A stretch of 16,772 nt of DNA. Source: Chloroflexota bacterium. GTDB taxonomy: Bacteria; Chloroflexota; Anaerolineae; UBA3071. Location: positions 1 to 16,772 of the forward strand of contig JACNHM010000369.1 in NCBI GenBank assembly GCA_014383605.1. The letters are read 5' to 3'. The first letter of the stretch is position 1. The number at the start of each line of letters is the position of its first letter. The notes beneath the pieces are model-generated. The model did not search any database. It was not told the origin of the DNA and worked only from the letters and a program-made list of their open reading frames with translations. The position numbers and the translations under genes were made by a program. Below, piece after piece: positions 2,520-16,692 of this stretch.

Positions 2520-4038
2520 ACGGCCAGAACCAGGGCTGCGTGTTCTGGTAGACCCAGGCGGCGGTGTGCATCACCTGCACAGAGACCAGCGCCCAGCCGG
2601 CGGCGCGCAGGGCGGCCCGCTCCGGCAGAGCCCGCGGCAGAACGTAGGCCGCCAGCAGCGTCAGCGGCAGGCTGGCCGGGGCGAAGAGGTCCCAATCGCG
2701 CCGCCCGCCGTAGTCGGGGTTCCAGACGAGGGTGAGGAACAGGTAGCCGCCGGCGGCCAACAGCAGAAAGCGCAGCGCCCGGTCGCCCCCGTCCAGGCGG
2801 CGGCGGGCCAACAGCCAGATCAGCAACAGCGCCGGCAGCGCCACCGGCGCGGTCAGCAGTTGCTCGTTGACGACGTCCAGCAGATGGGGCCAGGAGAACA
2901 TGGTGTAGCGTTCCCAGCGGGTGGTGGTGCGCAACAGGGGCACCAGCCAGCGGTGGTCGCCGCCGCCGGGGAAGTCTTCGCCCAGGAAGGCCTCCAGGCC
3001 ATGCCCGCCCGCCTCCATCAGCGCCAGCACCCCAACCCCCACGATCAGGCTAGGCAGTAGCACCTTACAGCCGATCTGGAGAGCTCGGAGAGCCGACACC
3101 TTGTCGGCGGCCTGTCGGCGGCTGGGAACCGCCTCTGCAGGCGGGTCTGTCGCCGCCTGCCTCACTTCACCCTGTTTCCACAGCGTCCAACCCAGAACCC
3201 ACAGCGACGGCTGCAGCACCAGCGTCGAAGGGTGAAAACCGTGGGTCAGTGCCAGCACGCTGGCGGGCCACACCACGTCCACCTCCCCCCGCAGGCCGCG
3301 CAGCGCCAGCCAGAGATAGGCCAGGATGCCCACGCAGATGATCGTGTAGCTCTCCACGTAGCCGAAGAAGAGTTGCATGGTGCCCAGGCTGGCCACCAGC
3401 CCGAAGATCAGCAGCTTCTCCGTGCGGTTGCGGCCCAGCGCGTCGGCCAGCCAGCAGAGGACGAAGATGAAGCCCACGCCGGCGACGCTGCTCAGCACCC
3501 AGTAGGCAGGCATGGCGTCGGCCCAGCCGAAGAGGTGATGGCCCAACGCCCAGAGTTTGGCGTGCAGGAAGATGTCCAGCGGCGCTTGCCAGTTGTAGGC
3601 CAGCCGCGCGTCGGGATGGGGGATAGCGTTGACCAGGATGTAGGCGTCGCCCCAGCGGGTGTGCACGATGCGGCCCAGCCAGAAGAGCGGCGCAAAGGCC
3701 AAAGCGACGAGGGCGAAAAGGAGGCGACGAGGGACAAGGGATAAGGGATAGGGGATAGGGGATCGAAAACGGCTCAGAACTCGCAAGCCATGATGTGTGA
3801 TTTGCGATTTGCCATTTGCAGTCCGCAATCCGCAATCCGCAATCCGCAATCGGAGAGGCAGGCAAGCGAGCAGAGCCAGCAGCGCAAAGACCCATCGCCA
3901 GAGGGGCGGCAAGTACGTGTACGGCCAAAGGCCCCAGGCCTGCTCCTCCGGCAGCAGCGGGGCCAGGAGGTGCAGGGTCACGAGGATCAGGCAAAGCAGA
4001 CGCATCGCCATCAGCAGGCGGCGGGACACCGCGCTCAC
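2518..4038 (-). CDS. Polytopic membrane protein, probable GT-C-type glycosyltransferase
   Basis: About 506 residues with many hydrophobic segments. I chose the GTG at 4038 and not the ATG at 4011 or 4005. It overlaps the upstream stop as GTGA and has GGAGGT nine bases upstream, within the end of the preceding gene. After the first membrane helices comes WGDAYILVN (residues 129-137), an acidic residue in the first large loop, as GT-C enzymes have for the lipid-linked donor. Near the C-terminus is WNPDYGG followed by DWDLF (439-452). I cannot name the family with certainty. Two stretches look inserted: residues about 63-103, made from heptanucleotide repeats, and about 290-317, GC-rich and palindromic; both fall in predicted loops. 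Coupling to the DUF2723 gene suggests the two act in the same pathway, such as transfer of a lipid-linked sugar to protein or glycan outside the membrane. The substrate is unknown. Confidence 0.7.
   Translation of the reverse strand: MSAVSRRLLMAMRLLCLILVTLHLLAPLLPEEQAWGLWPYTYLPPLWRWVFALLALLACLPLRLRIADCGLRTANGKSQITHHGLRVLSRFRSPIPYPLSLVPRRLLFALVALAFAPLFWLGRIVHTRWGDAYILVNAIPHPDARLAYNWQAPLDIFLHAKLWALGHHLFGWADAMPAYWVLSSVAGVGFIFVLCWLADALGRNRTEKLLIFGLVASLGTMQLFFGYVESYTIICVGILAYLWLALRGLRGEVDVVWPASVLALTHGFHPSTLVLQPSLWVLGWTLWKQGEVRQAATDPPAEAVPSRRQAADKVSALRALQIGCKVLLPSLIVGVGVLALMEAGGHGLEAFLGEDFPGGGDHRWLVPLLRTTTRWERYTMFSWPHLLDVVNEQLLTAPVALPALLLIWLLARRRLDGGDRALRFLLLAAGGYLFLTLVWNPDYGGRRDWDLFAPASLPLTLLAAYVLPRALPERAALRAAGWALVSVQVMHTAAWVYQNTQPWFWP
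3092..3160. repeat. GC-rich palindromic insert inside the GT-C-like gene
   Basis: This coding stretch contains a perfect 7-bp stem (gccgaca 3092-3098, tgtcggc 3102-3108) and a perfect 8-bp stem (gcaggcgg 3137-3144, ccgcctgc 3153-3160). It encodes about residues 290-317, a polar Ala/Arg-rich segment between two membrane helices. It resembles in style the hairpins at 138-180, not the heptad blocks. The frame is kept open. Confidence 0.5.
3731..3854. repeat. Two heptanucleotide blocks within the GT-C-like gene
   Basis: At 3731-3765, five consecutive 7-mers: gggacaa, gggataa, gggatag, gggatag, gggatcg. At 3799-3854, eight in register: gatttgc twice, catttgc, agtccgc, aatccgc three times, aatcgga. 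The second block changes from the gatttgc form to a reverse-complement-like form (gcggatt read backwards) midway. Together they encode residues of about 63-103 of the protein, including LRIADCGLR and PIPYPLSLVP. They sit between membrane helices and add an odd polar linker. Confidence 0.85.
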
Positions 4039-6044
4039 GGTAGCGTGACCTCCCCCAGCTCCGCTCGCCCCACCTCGTGGCCGTCGGCGGCGCGGTAGAG
4101 GATGATCAGCAGGCGGTACGGCCCCAGCGCGGCACTCTCCGGCAGCGGTAAATCGTAGCCGTCGGCCACCGTCTCCCCCGGCTGCCAGGCCCAGGTGGGG
4201 TAGGTGTTGTGCACCGGCACCTCGTCCGCAGCCACCACCACCTGACCTGTCCCGTCCAGCAAGCGGGCAGACACCTTCAGGTCGTCGCCCACCGGCGCAG
4301 TGACCCGCCAGTGCAGCGTCACGCGCAGCACGGGGCCAGCGTGCGCTTGGCGCATTTCCACGCCGTAGCCCGCCAGATCCACCGCCTCGGTGAAGGGAAG
4401 CATCAGCGCGTGCGGCAGCTGCGGCGGTTGCGCCTGCCCCTTGGGCCAGACCCGCACCAGCGGCCCCACGGCGGCCAGCGAGTAGCGCGCCGGCGCGCCG
4501 GCCAGCGGCCGGGTGATGTAGACCAGCTTCCCCGCGGCCAGCGCGGCGCCGATGGCCGCGTGGCGATCTTCCTCGGCGTCGGCGGCCACGGCGACCACGT
4601 CCGGACGCAACCCTTCCGTGTGCTGGAAGTAGCGCAGCAGCGTCGTCTCCCCCAGCAAGCCCACCACCGTCGCTCCCTGCGGCAGCGGCTGCGCCAGCAC
4701 GTCCCGCCCGACGTCGTGCACGGCCCAGTCCTGGCTGCGGTCGAGGACGGGAAAGTTCGCCCAGGCCAGCGACAGCGGCTCCAGCAAGCAGGCAACAGCC
4801 AGCATGATGCAAAACGTGAAACGTAGAACGTGAAACGTAAAACGTGATGCGTGATGCGTGATGCGTGAAACGTAATTGAGGAGGGTGCCCAGGCCGGCGG
4901 CGATGAGCAGCGACCAGAGCAGGAAGGCGGGGATGAAGAAGACCTCCACGTCGGCGGCGCGGTAGGCCAGGGCAAAGGCCAGGTTGGCCACGAGGGCCAG
5001 GACGATCAGCGCCCAGCGTCTGGGCTTGCGCAGCAGGGCGACCATTCCCAGCAGTCCCAGGATCAGCCCGGCCCAGCCGAACTGTGTCCGGAAGAGGTCG
5101 AAGTAGAACGCCGCTCCCCGCTGCACGGCGAAGGGATCGCCGGTGAGGAAGACGGAGTACTGGCTGGCCATCACCCAGCGCCAGAAGCCGGCCCAGGTGT
5201 TCTCGTAGCGCCCGTCCAGCGAGGTGATCACCAGCCCGCGCAGGGGAAGATAGAAGTACAGGAGCAGCGGCAGGAGCAGCGCGGCCAGAAGTCCCGGCCA
5301 GCGGCGCGGTTGGCGCAGCAGTTTCGGCTCCGTCCACAGCACGAACACGGCCAGGGCGGGAGCCAACAGCAGGGTCAGGCGGTGGTGGGTCAACGAGAGG
5401 CCGAAGACGAGACACGTAAAACGTGAAACGTGAAACGTAAAACGTGATGCGCTATGCGTGATGCGTGATGCGTGATGCGTGAGTTCCCAGCGGAGGATAA
5501 GCCAGAGGAGGAGGGCGACAAAGAGGCCGTGCAGCGCATACACCTCGGCGATGACGGCCTGCGACCACCAGACGGGCGAGAGAGCGAAGATCACCGCACC
5601 GCAAACGGCGGCCAGCCGCTGTCCGCTGAGGTGCTGTCCCGCCCGGTAGACGAAGGACACGGCCAACGCGGCGCAGACAGCCGAGAGCAGGTTCACGCGG
5701 AAGGCCGCATCGCCCAGCGGCAGCAACCGGGTGAAGAGCCAGCTCAAGAGCGTGTACAGCGGGTAACCGGTCTCGTGGGCGATCCCCAGCGTCGGCCCGA
5801 CGAGCTGAAACTCCAACGTATCGCTGAAGATGTCTGTGACGGAAGGAGCCAGCGTGCGCACGTAGAGGCCCAGGCTGAACAAGAACATCAACGCCGTGAG
5901 AAAGCTATCCCAATGCGGATTGCAGATTGCAGATTGCAGATTGCTTCCTGCCTCTTGCCTCTTGCCTCTTGCCTCTTGCCTCCTGCCTCTTGCTTCCTGC
6001 TTCCTGACTCTTGCTTCCTGCCTCTTGCCTCTTGCATCTTGCAT
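4035..6044 (-). CDS. DUF2723 family membrane glycosyltransferase (GT-C fold)
   Basis: A 669-residue polytopic protein. The N-terminal half has the DUF2723 signature: LYVRTLAPSVT (60-70), then SDTLEF (74-79) with acidic residues, and HETGYPLYTLL (90-100), equivalent to the family's HPPGYPLY-type motif. About ten membrane helices follow, then a soluble C-terminal domain (from about 435) ending in a beta-rich part. The family contains TMEM260, a eukaryotic protein O-mannosyltransferase, so lipid-linked sugar transfer to protein is the likely chemistry; the substrate here is unknown. The ATG at 6044 follows the upstream stop by 8 bases, with AGGAGG overlapping that stop. The first 43 or so residues are heptad-derived (RQEAR repeated), and ancestral coding probably begins near DSFLTALMF (46-54). 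Two more heptad inserts occupy residues 189-212 and 391-412. Confidence 0.88.
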   Translation of the reverse strand: MQDARGKRQEARVRKQEARGRRQEARGKRQEAGSNLQSAICNPHWDSFLTALMFLFSLGLYVRTLAPSVTDIFSDTLEFQLVGPTLGIAHETGYPLYTLLSWLFTRLLPLGDAAFRVNLLSAVCAALAVSFVYRAGQHLSGQRLAAVCGAVIFALSPVWWSQAVIAEVYALHGLFVALLLWLILRWELTHHASRITHSASRFTFHVSRFTCLVFGLSLTHHRLTLLLAPALAVFVLWTEPKLLRQPRRWPGLLAALLLPLLLYFYLPLRGLVITSLDGRYENTWAGFWRWVMASQYSVFLTGDPFAVQRGAAFYFDLFRTQFGWAGLILGLLGMVALLRKPRRWALIVLALVANLAFALAYRAADVEVFFIPAFLLWSLLIAAGLGTLLNYVSRITHHASRFTFHVLRFTFCIMLAVACLLEPLSLAWANFPVLDRSQDWAVHDVGRDVLAQPLPQGATVVGLLGETTLLRYFQHTEGLRPDVVAVAADAEEDRHAAIGAALAAGKLVYITRPLAGAPARYSLAAVGPLVRVWPKGQAQPPQLPHALMLPFTEAVDLAGYGVEMRQAHAGPVLRVTLHWRVTAPVGDDLKVSARLLDGTGQVVVAADEVPVHNTYPTWAWQPGETVADGYDLPLPESAALGPYRLLIILYRAADGHEVGRAELGEVTLP
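4811..4873. repeat. Nine tandem heptanucleotides inside the DUF2723 gene (distal block)
   Basis: Nine units in uninterrupted register: aaaacgt, gaaacgt, agaacgt, gaaacgt, aaaacgt, gatgcgt three times, gaaacgt. At 63 bp the block is exactly 21 codons long, so it keeps the reading frame. On the minus strand it encodes residues about 391-412 (SRITHHAS, then RFTFHVLRFT), a polar, aromatic segment between two membrane helices. Confidence 0.95.
5411..5480. repeat. Ten tandem heptanucleotides inside the DUF2723 gene (proximal block)
   Basis: Ten units in register: gacacgt, aaaacgt, gaaacgt twice, aaaacgt, gatgcgc, tatgcgt, gatgcgt three times. The unit family matches the block about 600 bp away at 4811-4873. 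Read on the minus strand it gives residues 189-212 (HASRITHSAS, then RFTFHVSRFT), nearly the same peptide as the other block. Both inserts are therefore read in the same one of three possible frames. Confidence 0.95.
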
Positions 6045-6067
6045 CTTGCCTCCTACCCCTCGCCCCT
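5914..6067. repeat. Twenty-two tandem heptanucleotides across a gene junction
   Basis: From tgcggat at 5914 to cgcccct ending at 6067 every 7 bases form a unit: tgcagat three times, then tgcctct, tgcttcc and tgcatct variants, 154 bp without a slip. Read on the minus strand the block provides the last codons and the TAG of the Mut7-C gene (6053-6055), the Shine-Dalgarno-like AGGAGG, the ATG at 6044 and the first 43 or so codons of the DUF2723 gene. The encoded peptide has a seven-residue periodicity (KRQEAR, RKQEAR, RRQEAR, KRQEAG), as expected when three heptads make seven codons. Confidence 0.95.
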
Positions 6068-8853: not shown

Positions 8854-9471
8854 TTAGCCCCCTTTCAATCCCGCCTCGTACAGGATCGTGTACACCGCCC
8901 CTGTGGGCTTCAGATCGCTGCTGATGAAGCTCACCGCCCGCACGGTCATGCTGCTCAACCGCCCCACGTCGCTGCGCTCCACCAGTTCGCCCAGCGCCCG
9001 GAGATCGGCTGAGCTGGCGCGGCGCTGCACGCGGCCCAGGGTCAGGTGCGGCTGGAAGCCTCGCTGCTCCGTGGGCCAGCCCAGCGGGGCCACCTGCGCT
9101 TCCACCGCCTGCCACAGCGCCCGCAGCGTCCCCGTCGGCTCCTTCACGCCCACCCAGACGTTGCGCGGACGGCGCGTGTGGGGAAAGCAGCCCAACCCTT
9201 CCACGCTGAAGGAGAAGGGGGGCACCTCCGCGGCCGCCGCGGTCAGCGCCCGCTGGATCTCCTCCAGCCGCGCCGCCGGTGTGTCGCCCAGGAATTTCAG
9301 CGTCAGATGGATGCCTTCGGGACGCACCCAGCGCATGCTACGCGGCGGCGCGGCAGCCTCCAGTTTGCCTTGGACTGCTGCCAGAGAGCGGAGCACCTGG
9401 TCATCGAGTTCGACAGCGATGAAGGTGCGCAGAACAGAAGGCAGTGACGTGCCCGATTTGGAATGATGCAT
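8854..9471 (-). CDS. thpR: RNA 2',3'-cyclic phosphodiesterase (2H family, ThpR)
   Basis: A 205-residue 2H phosphoesterase. The two catalytic HxTx motifs are HLTLKFLG (residues 55-62) and HLTLGR (142-147), separated by about 87 residues as in ThpR/LigT. The protein opens with RTFIAVEL (15-22), the family's usual first strand, so the 14 residues before it are an extension. The ATG at 9471 has GGAG about seven bases upstream and no start codon lies nearer to RTFIAVEL (the Val and Leu codons there are GTT and CTG). ThpR opens 2',3'-cyclic phosphate RNA ends to 2'-phosphate and can ligate RNA in reverse. It is cytoplasmic, and its physiological role in bacteria is not well settled. It is separated from the ubiD-like gene by a heptad hairpin. 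Confidence 0.93.
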   Translation of the reverse strand: MHHSKSGTSLPSVLRTFIAVELDDQVLRSLAAVQGKLEAAAPPRSMRWVRPEGIHLTLKFLGDTPAARLEEIQRALTAAAAEVPPFSFSVEGLGCFPHTRRPRNVWVGVKEPTGTLRALWQAVEAQVAPLGWPTEQRGFQPHLTLGRVQRRASSADLRALGELVERSDVGRLSSMTVRAVSFISSDLKPTGAVYTILYEAGLKGG

Positions 9472-9493: not shown

Positions 9494-9570
9494 GGGGTAA
9501 GGGACAGGGGTTATGGGTTAGGGGAAACGCCCCTCGCCCCTCACCCTCAACCCCTATCCCCTGTCCCGAC
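9494..9570. repeat. Eleven tandem heptanucleotides forming a large inverted repeat
   Basis: Eleven units in register: ggggtaa, gggacag, gggttat, gggttag, gggaaac, gcccctc twice, accctca, acccta-type, tcccctg, tcccgac. The first half is G-rich and the second is its approximate reverse complement; gggacagggg (9501-9510) pairs perfectly with cccctgtccc (9558-9567). It contains the stop codon of the UbiD-family gene (9547-9549) and its last codons. It might act as a transcript-end hairpin, although no T-run follows. Confidence 0.9.
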
Positions 9571-10887
9571 GTATTCAGCTACGTTGATCGACTCCAACGC
9601 CACCCTCCGATACCCCTCTGGCTCACTTGGCCCGTGCGGCGTGTCCCAGGGGACGGTGGCGTCGAGGGCCATCTTGCTGGTGCGGGCCTTGCGCCCCGGC
9701 ACCTGCTCCGCTGAAGGGTCCAGCGAGCTGGATGGCTGATCCTCGAAGACGAAGAGGTCGCGGGCCGCCTGGAAGCGGGTGGCGATGGCCCATTCCACCT
9801 GCCGCATGTCGAAGAGGTCCACGTCGGTGTCCAAGACGACCACGTGCTTGAGCGACGCATGGCCGCGGAAGGCGGCTTCGGCTGCCCGCCGCCCGTCGTC
9901 GGGGTGATGCTTCTCGATCTGCACCACAGCGTGCAGCCAGGAGGTGCCGCCCGGCGTGATGTGCACGTTGCGGCAGTCGCAGACCTCGTTGACAGCGGCA
10001 TATATGGTCGGCTCCCGCGGCAGCCCCATGAGCAGCTTGTGCTCCAGCCCGCCCGGCAGCAGCGCCTGGTAGATGGGCTCCTGGCGATGCGTGATGAGGT
10101 CTATCTCGATCACCGGCTGCTGGCGCACGATGTCGTAGGTTTCCGTCAGGTCAACGAAGGGTCCTTCGGCCACGGTGCGGTGGGTGATGCGCCCTTCCAG
10201 GACGAACTCGGCGGTCGCCGGCACACGCAGGGGCACGGTGCGGCAGCGCACGACGGGCGTGGGGGCCAACGCCTGGGCGATGGTCAGCTCGTCCACGTCC
10301 GGCGATGGGGACATGGCCGCGGCCAGCAGCACGTGCGGCGGCAGGCCAATGCAGATGGCCACCGACAGGTCGCCCTGCGCCTTGCCCAGCGCTGTGTGTG
10401 TGCCCCTCCCCTCCACCACGCGCGCCGCAAACCTCCGTTCGTCCAGCCGCAGCAACCGGTGAAAGGACATGCTGGGGCCGGTGTCCGGGTCCTCGATGAA
10501 GGTCACGGCGGCGGTAGCATAGGGTCCGGCGTCGTGCGGCCAGTGGGTGAGGAAGGGCAGCGTTGTCAGATCCACGCCCGGCTCCACGACTTCCTGGCAA
10601 GGGGCGGAGTCCACCACCGGCAGGGGCTGCCGATGGGCCAGCGCCTCCGCCAAGCGGAAGAGCAACTCGTCCGGCGGGCAGCCCAGCGCCAGGGCGAAAT
10701 ACCGCCGGTCGGAGCAGACGCCCGCAGCGACGCGGGTGGCCGAGCCCTTCACGTCGGTGAAGAGCAGCGGTCGCCCCTCCAGCGCGCCGATGACCCGCGC
10801 CATCTCCAGGTGCGGGTCCACGGGCCGGGTGATGGTCAACAGGTACCCAGCAGCATCAGCTTTGTCCAGAAACTCTCGCAGATCCAT
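9547..10887 (-). CDS. UbiD-family prenylated-FMN decarboxylase, candidate anhydromevalonate phosphate decarboxylase
   Basis: About 446 residues from the ATG at 10887, which has GAGGAG six bases upstream; the longer reading from 10914 lacks this. UbiD family features include DAGPYATAAVT (119-129), EGPFVDLTETYD (241-252), LPGGLEHKLLMG (277-288), KHVVVLDTDVDLFD (347-360) and WAIATRFQ (366-373), then DATVPWDTP (409-417). The catalytic acid pair of the EGPFxE/D motif is E241 and D246. Such enzymes need prenylated FMN made by UbiX, which is not in this window. The gene lies 29 bp downstream of mevalonate kinase on the same strand. That placement suggests the archaeal-type step, decarboxylation of trans-anhydromevalonate 5-phosphate to isopentenyl phosphate. 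Ubiquinone/menaquinone or aromatic-acid decarboxylation remains possible. The last residues (GDRG) are heptad-encoded. Confidence 0.85.
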   Translation of the reverse strand: MDLREFLDKADAAGYLLTITRPVDPHLEMARVIGALEGRPLLFTDVKGSATRVAAGVCSDRRYFALALGCPPDELLFRLAEALAHRQPLPVVDSAPCQEVVEPGVDLTTLPFLTHWPHDAGPYATAAVTFIEDPDTGPSMSFHRLLRLDERRFAARVVEGRGTHTALGKAQGDLSVAICIGLPPHVLLAAAMSPSPDVDELTIAQALAPTPVVRCRTVPLRVPATAEFVLEGRITHRTVAEGPFVDLTETYDIVRQQPVIEIDLITHRQEPIYQALLPGGLEHKLLMGLPREPTIYAAVNEVCDCRNVHITPGGTSWLHAVVQIEKHHPDDGRRAAEAAFRGHASLKHVVVLDTDVDLFDMRQVEWAIATRFQAARDLFVFEDQPSSSLDPSAEQVPGRKARTSKMALDATVPWDTPHGPSEPEGYRRVALESINVAEYVGTGDRG

Positions 10888-10916
10888 GAGCACTCCTCGG
10901 TTGGACGCGGACAAAG

Positions 10917-11888
10917 TTAAGAATCCATGGTTGTCCGCGGTTGTACGCGTCCCTCTTGCTTCACTTGCGTGATGATAACTTCAGTCGTTCTCGAGGCTCG
11001 CAAGGCAGCGGCCACCTCCTGCGCTGTCTGCGGTGTCACCAGAGTGATGACGTTGCCGCCGCGGCCGGCACCGGAGAGCTTGGCCCCGCCCGCGCCAGCC
11101 TGCCTCGCCGCCGCGCACAGTTCGTCCAGTAGGGGCGAGGAGACGTTGATGGCCGCCAACAGCCGCTGGTTCTCGTCCATCAGCGGGCCGAGTTCGGCCA
11201 CAGCGCCCGTTTCGATGGCCTGGCGAGCAGCTTCGGCAATGCCGCCCATCTCGTCGAACAGCGTGTCGTAGCGGGCCGTCTCCGCCTGCCAGGCGCGGCG
11301 CACATCCCCCACGACGACCCTCGTGGGGCTGGCAACGCCGCTGTCGGCGATGGCCAGCCAGAAGTCGGCACCGACGCTCAACGGCTGCGGCGGCTGCCCC
11401 CTCACAAAATACACCGGCCGCTCGTAGGCCACCACGGTGTTGTCAATGCCGCTGGGCGTGCCGTGGTGCAGCCGTTCCGTCTCGTAAACCAGTCCGGAAA
11501 TGACGTCCGGGGACAGAGGCCTCCCGGCATGCTGCGCCAACGCCCGCACGATGGCCGTGGAGACGGCCGCGCCGCTGCCCAGCCCGCCGGCGATGGGAAT
11601 GTCGGAGCGGAGCGTGATCGTCCAGTCCGGCTCGGCGACGATGCCCAGTTCACCCAGCGTCAGACGGACGATGAGGGCCAGCGGATCGTCGGGCGGCGCG
11701 TCGGCAAGGGAAAGTCGCCGGTTCAGGTCAGCGGCGAGGACCGTGCAGCCCGCGCCCGGCGGCGCATCGGCCACCGTGGCCCAGGCCCGCAATTCGGCCA
11801 CCGGCACGGCAATGGCCGGCCGGCCGTAAACCACGGCGTGCTCGCCGAACAGAATCACCTTGCCCGAAGCAGAAGCCGTTGTTGCCAT
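10917..11888 (-). CDS. mvk: Mevalonate kinase
   Basis: A 323-residue GHMP kinase. SGKVILFGEHAVVYG (residues 8-22) is the mevalonate-kinase N-terminal motif. IPIAGGLGSGAA (97-108) is the ATP-binding GHMP motif 2. ETERLHHGTPSGIDN (136-150) holds the Mg-binding Glu and the catalytic Asp (D149), and KLSGAGRGGNVI (270-281) is motif 3. It phosphorylates mevalonate to mevalonate 5-phosphate for isoprenoid synthesis. Motif 2 reads GLGSGAA where most homologues have GLGSSAA, a small change in the phosphate loop. The start ATG has GGAGAG four to five bases upstream, and a promoter with a 17-bp spacer precedes it. It probably heads a two-gene operon with the UbiD-family gene. No phosphomevalonate kinase or diphosphomevalonate decarboxylase is in the window. 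Confidence 0.93.
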   Translation of the reverse strand: MATTASASGKVILFGEHAVVYGRPAIAVPVAELRAWATVADAPPGAGCTVLAADLNRRLSLADAPPDDPLALIVRLTLGELGIVAEPDWTITLRSDIPIAGGLGSGAAVSTAIVRALAQHAGRPLSPDVISGLVYETERLHHGTPSGIDNTVVAYERPVYFVRGQPPQPLSVGADFWLAIADSGVASPTRVVVGDVRRAWQAETARYDTLFDEMGGIAEAARQAIETGAVAELGPLMDENQRLLAAINVSSPLLDELCAAARQAGAGGAKLSGAGRGGNVITLVTPQTAQEVAAALRASRTTEVIITQVKQEGRVQPRTTMDS

Positions 11889-15774: not shown

Positions 15775-16692
15775 CTAGAGAAACTCCCTCACCGCATCCC
15801 CCACTCGTTCGGCGCAATCCGGCGCGCTGGCGTCGAACCAGCGGATGGCCGTGTCGTCCAGCCGGAACCAGGTGGATTGCTGGCGCACGAAACGGCGCGT
15901 CTCCCGCTTGATCAACGCCACCGCCTCCTCCAGCGTGGCCTCGCCCTGCAGATAGAGGCCGATCTGCCGGTAGCCGAGACCGCTCAGGGCCGGCAGGTCG
16001 AAGCCGTAGCCCTGGGCCACCAGCGCCCGCACTTCCTCCACCAGGCCGCTGGCGATCATGCGCTCCACCCGCTCGTCAATACGCCGATAGAGCAGGGACC
16101 GTGGCATGGTCAGCCCGAGGCGCAGGATGCGGTACGGCGGCGGCCGTTTGGCCTGCAATGCGCTGATGGGCCGTCCCGCCGTCACACACACCTCCAGCGC
16201 CCGGATCACCCGCCGCACGTTGCGCGGATCCATGCGCGCCGCCGCCTGCGGATCGAGCGCCGCCAGCCAGCGGTGCAGCGCCGCGCCGCCCTGCCGCTCG
16301 GCCTCCTGCTCCAGCGCCGCCCGCAGCGCGGGGTTGGGTTTCACGCGGGGAATCGTCCATCCTTCCAGCACCGCCCGCACGTAGAGGCCGCTGCCGCCCA
16401 CCAGCAGCGGCAGCTTGTCGCGGCGCAGGATGTCCTCTATAGCCGCGTAGGCCAGACGCTGATAGTCGGCCAGCGTCAGCGGTTCATCGGGATTCGTCAG
16501 ATCGAGGAGATGATGGGGCACGCGGCGCTGTTCATCGGGCGTGGCCTTGGCCGCGCCGATGTCCAGGCCGCGATAGACCTGCCGCGAGTCGCCAGAGACC
16601 ACCTCGCCGGCGAAGGCCTCGGCCAGATGCAGGGAGATGGCCGTTTTGCCCACGGCCGTGGGGCCGATCACAGCGATCAGGGGAGGGAACAA
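15775..16692 (-). CDS. miaA: tRNA dimethylallyltransferase
   Basis: A 305-residue protein, normal for MiaA. It has the P-loop GPTAVGKT (residues 10-17), then GDSRQVYRGLDIG and the RRVPHHLLDL and PLLVGGSGLYVRAVLEG stretches, all MiaA hallmarks. The RNVRRVIRALEV and LGYRQIG motifs follow. It transfers a dimethylallyl group from DMAPP to A37 of tRNAs reading UNN codons, so it depends on isoprenoid supply. The start is TTG, with AAGGG six bases upstream and the upstream gene's TAG three bases away, indicating translational coupling. A later in-frame GTG would cut into the first beta strand and is less likely. No mutL or hfq is seen in the visible flank. Confidence 0.95.
   Translation of the reverse strand: MFPPLIAVIGPTAVGKTAISLHLAEAFAGEVVSGDSRQVYRGLDIGAAKATPDEQRRVPHHLLDLTNPDEPLTLADYQRLAYAAIEDILRRDKLPLLVGGSGLYVRAVLEGWTIPRVKPNPALRAALEQEAERQGGAALHRWLAALDPQAAARMDPRNVRRVIRALEVCVTAGRPISALQAKRPPPYRILRLGLTMPRSLLYRRIDERVERMIASGLVEEVRALVAQGYGFDLPALSGLGYRQIGLYLQGEATLEEAVALIKRETRRFVRQQSTWFRLDDTAIRWFDASAPDCAERVGDAVREFL

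What the first reader, a model, noticed from the sequence alone, without database searches (positions are those of the whole stretch)
9547..11888. Mevalonate kinase paired with a UbiD-family gene: possible archaeal-type mevalonate route in a bacterium
Seen: a UbiD-family decarboxylase starts 29 bp after mevalonate kinase on the same strand, behind one predicted promoter. Established: in many archaea a UbiD homologue decarboxylates trans-anhydromevalonate 5-phosphate to isopentenyl phosphate, which isopentenyl phosphate kinase then phosphorylates; an aconitase-X-like phosphomevalonate dehydratase makes the substrate. Inferred: this UbiD is that enzyme. Most bacteria with mevalonate pathways use the diphosphomevalonate decarboxylase route instead, so this would be notable.
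Basis: partly seen in the sequence, partly recalled or inferred. Interest (0 to 1): 0.75.

Follow-up and report, generated by a model that had tools for sequence, protein, structure and literature searches.

The report
Archaeal-type isoprenoid gene in a bacterium
This Chloroflexota bacterium most likely builds its isoprenoids (the units of quinones, carotenoids and other lipids) by a mevalonate route once thought confined to archaea; the route was already reported from one bacterium of the same phylum, and here it looks common in a whole bacterial class.

Summary
In detail: mevalonate kinase (10917-11888, -) is followed after 29 bp by a UbiD-family gene (9547-10887, -). The UbiD protein groups with archaeal homologues (100/100), with HmfF, AnInD and E. 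coli UbiD outside. The window's genome is not held. The closest held genome, G043, has the same gene order (proteins 85% and 83% identical), plus PMDh-clade aconitase X, its small subunit, isopentenyl phosphate kinase and UbiX, and no match for an MDD-type decarboxylase or DXR. In L006, L136 and L140 these genes are clustered. Of 397 genomes of the class, 115 have the orthologue; AcnX is over cut-off in 111 of these against 28 of the other 282, and an MDD-type match occurs in 11 of 96 of the main group against 242 of 282. The pathway in a bacterium is not new: Kanno et al. 2024 (title seen in a reference list) reported it from Ca. Promineifilum breve. Breadth, a subclade with both routes, and fused dehydratase genes are what I add. 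No activity was tested.

The parts
10917..11888 (-). mevalonate kinase (MVK), makes mevalonate 5-phosphate
   Evidence: TIGR00549 231.8 bits, cut-off 163.05; the eleven best PDB matches are mevalonate kinases
10888..10916 (-). 29-bp gap between MVK stop and UbiD ATG
   Evidence: read directly
9547..10887 (-). [quoted passage not shown]
10456..10458 (-). Arg144, equivalent of the conserved Arg of the UbiD catalytic triad (role recalled from Fdc1 work)
   Evidence: present in all 41 aligned UbiD rows
10165..10167 (-). Glu241 of the EGPF motif, catalytic triad (role recalled)
   Evidence: present in all 41 aligned rows
10150..10152 (-). Asp246, third triad residue (role recalled)
   Evidence: Asp in 31 of 31 rows of the AMPD group
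10015..10041 (-). His283 to Arg291 (HKLLMGLPR), stretch shared with the archaeal rows; proposed phosphate-binding site (inference)
   Evidence: His in 31 of 31 and Arg or Lys in 31 of 31 AMPD-group rows; also kept in HmfF and L110
8854..9471 (-). RNA 2',3'-cyclic phosphodiesterase (LigT family), next gene downstream; a recurrent neighbour, not part of the pathway
   Evidence: TIGR02258 145.2 bits, cut-off 65.7; just downstream of the UbiD gene in L001, L002, L004, L009, L012, L131, L132, L139

Best explanation
The window carries two genes of an archaeal-type mevalonate pathway in a bacterium related to Anaerolineae (Chloroflexota). Mevalonate kinase makes mevalonate 5-phosphate. A two-subunit aconitase X (phosphomevalonate dehydratase, PMDh; genes elsewhere in the genome) removes water to give trans-anhydromevalonate 5-phosphate. 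The window's UbiD protein, with prenylated FMN made by UbiX, decarboxylates this to isopentenyl phosphate, and isopentenyl phosphate kinase (IPK, elsewhere) makes isopentenyl diphosphate. Shown by sequence: gene order, families, tree position, conserved catalytic residues, and partner genes in the syntenic genome G043 and in most relatives searched. Inferred: substrate and activity of every enzyme; that the window's genome holds the partners as G043 does; and that His283/Arg291, kept in HmfF and the archaeal rows but not in E. coli UbiD, hold the substrate phosphate.
For: Tree of 41 UbiD proteins: window, 20 other Chloroflexota rows, 9 archaeal rows and one MAG labelled archaeon form one group (100/100); HmfF, AnInD, E. 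coli UbiD and seven paralogues lie outside. The archaeon of L024 (G024) has AcnX, IPK and UbiX, no MDD or DXR match and one UbiD gene, so its member of the group is AMPD by elimination. Gene clusters: MVK, UbiD, a protein kinase-like ORF, AcnX large, AcnX small, IPK (L006); UbiD, AcnX large, small, IPK (L136, L140); UbiD, AcnX large, small, UbiX (L134); UbiD, AcnX large, small in the archaeon-labelled MAG (L020). UbiD and AcnX lie within 6.3 kb on one contig in at least 55 genomes, within 400 bp in 35 of these (from the capped lists). Class survey of 397 genomes: orthologue in 115; AcnX over cut-off in 111 of 115 against 28 of 282; MDD-type match in 11 of 96 of the main group against 242 of 282; full-length DXR in 3 of 397, none with the orthologue. 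IPK over cut-off in 73 and UbiX in 65 of the 80 genomes given (of 115). The AcnX of G043 and G001 falls in the clade of T. kodakarensis PMDh (SH-aLRT 100), in which 37 of 37 other rows keep the three Cys that match the A. pernix PMDh ligands (Cys122/297/356; PMC10040528, passages); the other AcnX clade has Ser at one of them in 14 of 14 rows. The window protein is 61% identical to a protein named from Promineifilum sp. (P0158), the genus in which the pathway was reported.
Confidence: 0.92

Rival explanations
1. The UbiD protein is a decarboxylase of aromatic or heteroaromatic acids of the HmfF kind, and its place beside mevalonate kinase is incidental.
For: HmfF is the closest solved relative; one source calls many relatives '2,5-furandicarboxylate decarboxylase 1'; a His and an Arg that I recall as pocket residues of HmfF are conserved.
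Against: HmfF lies outside the group that joins the window with archaeal proteins (100/100). The third triad residue is Asp in 31 of 31 rows of that group and Glu in HmfF. Clusters with AcnX, IPK, UbiX and MVK in relatives and co-occurrence with AcnX (111 of 115) are not expected of a catabolic enzyme.
Confidence: 0.03
2. It is the quinone-pathway decarboxylase (UbiD or the menaquinone type).
For: UbiD family membership; in 20 of 28 relatives searched it is the only UbiD-family gene found.
Against: Far below the NCBIfam cut-offs for the menaquinone (176.1 of 495.9) and ubiquinone (140.4 of 788) models; four relatives have a second UbiD gene that groups with E. coli UbiD (L096-L099).
Confidence: 0.01
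3. The enzyme is the anhydromevalonate phosphate decarboxylase, but the organism also keeps an MDD-type decarboxylase, so the archaeal-type route is a second, conditional route.
For: 17 of 19 genomes of a subclade with 47-52% identical orthologues carry both, in G149 and G357 side by side; so do 11 of 96 in the main group.
Against: G043, the syntenic relative, has no MDD match, nor have 85 of 96 genomes of the main group.
Confidence: 0.04

Closest known systems
Archaeal mevalonate pathway in Candidatus Promineifilum breve, Chloroflexota (Kanno et al. 2024, AEM 90:e0110624; title seen in the reference list of PMC13001223, paper not held, its content recalled)
   Same: Same pathway in the same phylum; the window's UbiD is 61% identical to a protein named from Promineifilum sp..
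   Different: Another lineage. In G043 and most other relatives of the window the dehydratase large subunit stands alone; in G082, whose decarboxylase is 82% identical to the Promineifilum protein, large and small are fused (L137). As I recall, Kanno et al. present the case as nearly unique among bacteria; here the orthologue is in 115 of 397 genomes of the class.
Archaeal modified mevalonate pathway of Aeropyrum pernix (phosphomevalonate dehydratase and anhydromevalonate phosphate decarboxylase; Hayakawa et al. 2018, seen as a citation; PMC10040528, abstract and passages)
   Same: Same enzyme families; ligand cysteines of the dehydratase kept.
   Different: Bacterial host; PMC10040528 calls the pathway unique to archaea.
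Roseiflexus alternative mevalonate pathway (mevalonate phosphate decarboxylase + IPK; Dellas et al. 2013, PMC3857490, passages)
   Same: Chloroflexota, mevalonate-based, no DXP pathway, ends through IPK.
   Different: There an MDD-like decarboxylase acts on mevalonate 5-phosphate; here dehydratase plus UbiD take its place. That paper found IPK only in the class Chloroflexi of the phylum (five genomes then).
HmfF of Pelotomaculum thermopropionicum (PDB 6h6v)
   Same: Closest solved structure, same UbiD fold, His and Arg at the same two positions.
   Different: Outside the AMPD group in the tree; third triad residue Glu instead of Asp.

Membership tests
Anhydromevalonate phosphate decarboxylase (AMPD) | UbiD fold, all three domains | tested here: met
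   Pfam domains over cut-off; predicted fold matches UbiD enzymes over the full length
Anhydromevalonate phosphate decarboxylase (AMPD) | conserved Arg-Glu-Glu/Asp of UbiD catalysis | tested here: met
   R144, E241, D246; role recalled, not from a call
Anhydromevalonate phosphate decarboxylase (AMPD) | groups with archaeal AMPDs, apart from quinone and aromatic decarboxylases | tested here: met
   100/100; the archaeal rows are MAG proteins, none biochemically tested
Anhydromevalonate phosphate decarboxylase (AMPD) | decarboxylates trans-anhydromevalonate 5-phosphate with prFMN | not testable with these tools
   needs an assay
Archaeal-type mevalonate pathway | PMDh-type aconitase X, large and small subunit, in the genome | tested here: inconclusive
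   window's genome not held; present in the syntenic G043; AcnX over cut-off in 111 of 115 orthologue-bearing genomes
Archaeal-type mevalonate pathway | isopentenyl phosphate kinase in the genome | tested here: inconclusive
   window's genome not held; over cut-off in G043 and in 73 of 80 relatives
Archaeal-type mevalonate pathway | UbiX present | tested here: inconclusive
   window's genome not held; G043 236.2 bits, 65 of 80 relatives over cut-off
Archaeal-type mevalonate pathway | no diphosphomevalonate decarboxylase-type gene and no DXR | tested here: inconclusive
   window's genome not held; no match in G043; 11 of 96 and 17 of 19 relatives have an MDD-type match
Archaeal-type mevalonate pathway | no phosphomevalonate kinase | not tested
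   no search made
HmfF (furandicarboxylate decarboxylase) | groups with HmfF | tested here: not met
   HmfF outside the 100/100 group
Menaquinone decarboxylase TIGR03701 / UbiD PRK10922 | over the curated cut-off | tested here: not met
   176.1 of 495.9 and 140.4 of 788 bits

The most novel reading that the evidence does not exclude
The anhydromevalonate route is not an archaeal speciality with one bacterial exception but the main isoprenoid route of a large part of the class Anaerolineae, where it has displaced the MDD-type route. One subclade, with both sets side by side in G149 and G357, is a living intermediate of the replacement, and other lineages have fused the dehydratase subunits to each other or the small subunit to isopentenyl phosphate kinase.
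Probability: 0.75. Interest if true: 0.6.

Novelty: new member of a known kind. Interest (0 to 1): 0.5.

Why it matters
The archaeal route is called ATP-saving and its dehydratase is oxygen-sensitive (PMC10040528, passages), so who uses it says something about the energy budget and oxygen history of these bacteria. A class-wide bacterial distribution gives many new orthologues for engineering, material for working out transfer between archaea and bacteria, and genomes with both routes in which replacement can be studied directly.

Tried and rejected
Rejected: HmfF-like, quinone-type and dual-route readings (see rivals). AcnX of the window's relatives as hydroxyproline dehydratase: in the large-subunit tree, 11 of the 16 rows from genomes without the UbiD orthologue, and second copies in three genomes with it (L038, L041, L044), form a separate clade with Ser at one cluster ligand; the rows of G043 and G001 do not. 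The other 5 of the 16 (L152, L159, L164, L166, L167) fall in the PMDh clade; I read them as gaps in assemblies, which is not shown. The type I row of that tree (7d2r) has Cys at this ligand where 7cnp and 7cnq have Ser; it is probably an engineered form, so it is no control for that position. 51 of 397 genomes have weak DXR matches (under 33 bits, mostly 35-65 residues), two of them with the orthologue (G209, G303); I did not count these as DXR.

Led nowhere: promoter scan. For the pathway across Chloroflexota I searched titles and full text of an open-licence library, saw the listings, and looked at passages of PMC11052028, PMC10040528, PMC13001223, PMC8184944, PMC3857490, PMC11129491 and PMC13412983; none describes it. 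The other listed papers were not opened.

Rows left out: UbiD tree, 3 of 33 loci (L022, L025 partial, L023 broken). AcnX tree, four short rows (L052, L061, L062, L063) and identical copies; quick method, SH-aLRT only. 16 of the 28 AcnX-bearing genomes without the orthologue were fetched.

Limits: 16 of the 115 orthologue-bearing genomes had already been reached through; without these the figure is 99 of 381. The orthologue threshold (47% identity or more; other genomes' listed matches 39% or less) was read off the gap in the capped list; a few matches are fragments. IPK and UbiX were given 80 of the 115 genomes (67 of 96 of the main group, 13 of 19 of the subclade). The Fisher values ignore kinship and are not used.

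Full report
What is there. The window comes from a Chloroflexota bacterium: the UbiD protein's nearest relatives in named genomes are Anaerolineales UBA3071 (86% in the best stretch) and Caldilineales and Anaerolineae MAGs. On the minus strand a mevalonate kinase (10917-11888; TIGR00549 231.8 bits) is followed after 29 bases by a UbiD-family decarboxylase (9547-10887). A LigT-family phosphodiesterase follows (8854-9471).

Partner genes. The window's genome is not held, so relatives were searched. In the 24 genomes of L001-L024 (22 bacterial, the archaeon-labelled L020, the archaeon L024) AcnX is over cut-off in 22, IPK in 18, UbiX in 16; an MDD-type C-terminal domain matches in 2 and DXR in none. 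In 28 genomes (these 24 and four more archaea) 20 have a single UbiD-family gene. The closest held genome, G043, has the window's local order (transglutaminase-like, MVK, UbiD, LigT, LDcluster4; L132), with UbiD 85% and MVK 83% identical. It has AcnX (L133), the AcnX small subunit and IPK in one frame (L146) and UbiX (contig C100), and no DXR or MDD match.

Clusters. L006 has MVK, UbiD, a protein kinase-like ORF (named by eye, not by a profile search), AcnX large, AcnX small and IPK in a row; L136 and L140 have UbiD, AcnX large, small and IPK; L134 has UbiD, AcnX large, small and UbiX. UbiD and AcnX lie within 6.3 kb on one contig in at least 55 genomes, within 400 bp in 35 of these (the lists it draws on are capped).

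Is the aconitase X the right one? Against solved structures a representative (L039, genome G016) scores 355.6 bits with T. kodakarensis PMDh and 225 with type I hydroxyproline dehydratase. In the tree of 53 large subunits the linked, fused and G043/G001 forms group with that PMDh (SH-aLRT 100); another clade holds 11 of 16 rows from genomes without the UbiD orthologue. 37 of 37 rows of the PMDh clade keep the three cysteines that match the cluster ligands of A. pernix PMDh; 14 of 14 rows of the other clade have Ser at one. NCBIfam has no PMDh model among the hits; the AcnX proteins score 325.7 and 359.6 with the hydroxyproline dehydratase model, cut-off 700.

Spread. Of 397 genomes of the class (90% completeness asked for, not shown), 115 have the UbiD orthologue (47-86% identity; other genomes' listed matches 39% or less). 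AcnX is over cut-off in 111 of 115 against 28 of 282; an MDD-type match (E up to 0.001) occurs in 11 of 96 of the main group, 17 of 19 of a subclade with 47-52% identity, and 242 of 282 of the rest. Full-length DXR occurs in 3 of 397, none with the orthologue. So the class seems to live mainly on mevalonate, and two ways of finishing it mostly exclude each other outside that subclade. 40 of the 282 show neither. IPK is over cut-off in 73 and UbiX in 65 of the 80 genomes given, of 115.

What was known. Dellas et al. 2013 (PMC3857490, passages) showed mevalonate phosphate decarboxylase plus IPK in Roseiflexus. PMC10040528 (2023; abstract, passages) calls the anhydromevalonate route unique to archaea. 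PMC11052028 (2024; passages) takes AcnX and AMPD as its specific enzymes and finds it dominant in archaea. PMC13001223 (2026; passages) says that some Chloroflexota encode an archaeal-type pathway and cites Kanno et al. 2024 on Ca. Promineifilum breve; that paper is not held and its content I only recall. The window's UbiD is 61% identical to a protein named from Promineifilum sp.. The window is therefore a new member of a known kind. The class-wide spread, the genomes with both routes and the fusions I did not find in the papers seen (searches named under Tried and rejected); Kanno et al. may treat some of it.

How sure. Identity of the decarboxylase 0.92; the substrate and all activities remain inferred.

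Noticed in passing
L134 (G149), L135 (G357) and 15 further genomes of the 47-52% subclade: 17 of 19 genomes have both the UbiD orthologue and an MDD-type match; in G149 and G357 the MDD gene lies divergently beside UbiD-AcnX large-small. L135's MDD scores over the diphosphomevalonate decarboxylase cut-off (256.8 of 171.35) and under the phosphomevalonate decarboxylase one (220.4 of 475).
   Followed up: partly
L146:8845-11436 (-), genome G043: AcnX small subunit and IPK lie in one uninterrupted frame, joined by a linker that reads like a translated intergenic repeat (NPQSAIRNPQSA), a possible fusion.
   Followed up: partly
L014, L017, L019, L137 (G082): AcnX large and small subunits fused in the order large-small (590-599 aa), unlike type I, which has the small domain first (PMC10040528); on a long branch within the PMDh clade, cysteines kept.
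   Followed up: partly
L020 (MAG labelled archaeon, Dive96_bin4.413): UbiD, AcnX large and small in a row behind a weakly MVK-like open end (29% identity); its UbiD groups with the Chloroflexota rows rather than the other archaea, so either a transfer or a mislabelled bin.
   Followed up: partly
L153-L158, L160-L163, L165 (AcnX clade): Another AcnX in genomes of the class, with Ser in place of one cluster cysteine (GSPHFS); function unknown.
   Followed up: no
window 3790-6050: Reading frames contain many short copies of dispersed repeats (SAIRNPQS, HHASRFTFHVSRFT and the like), as if repeats had spread inside coding sequence.
   Followed up: no
window 15775-16692 (-): MiaA, which uses dimethylallyl diphosphate, a product of the pathway, lies 3.9 kb upstream of mevalonate kinase on the same strand; probably coincidence.
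   Followed up: no
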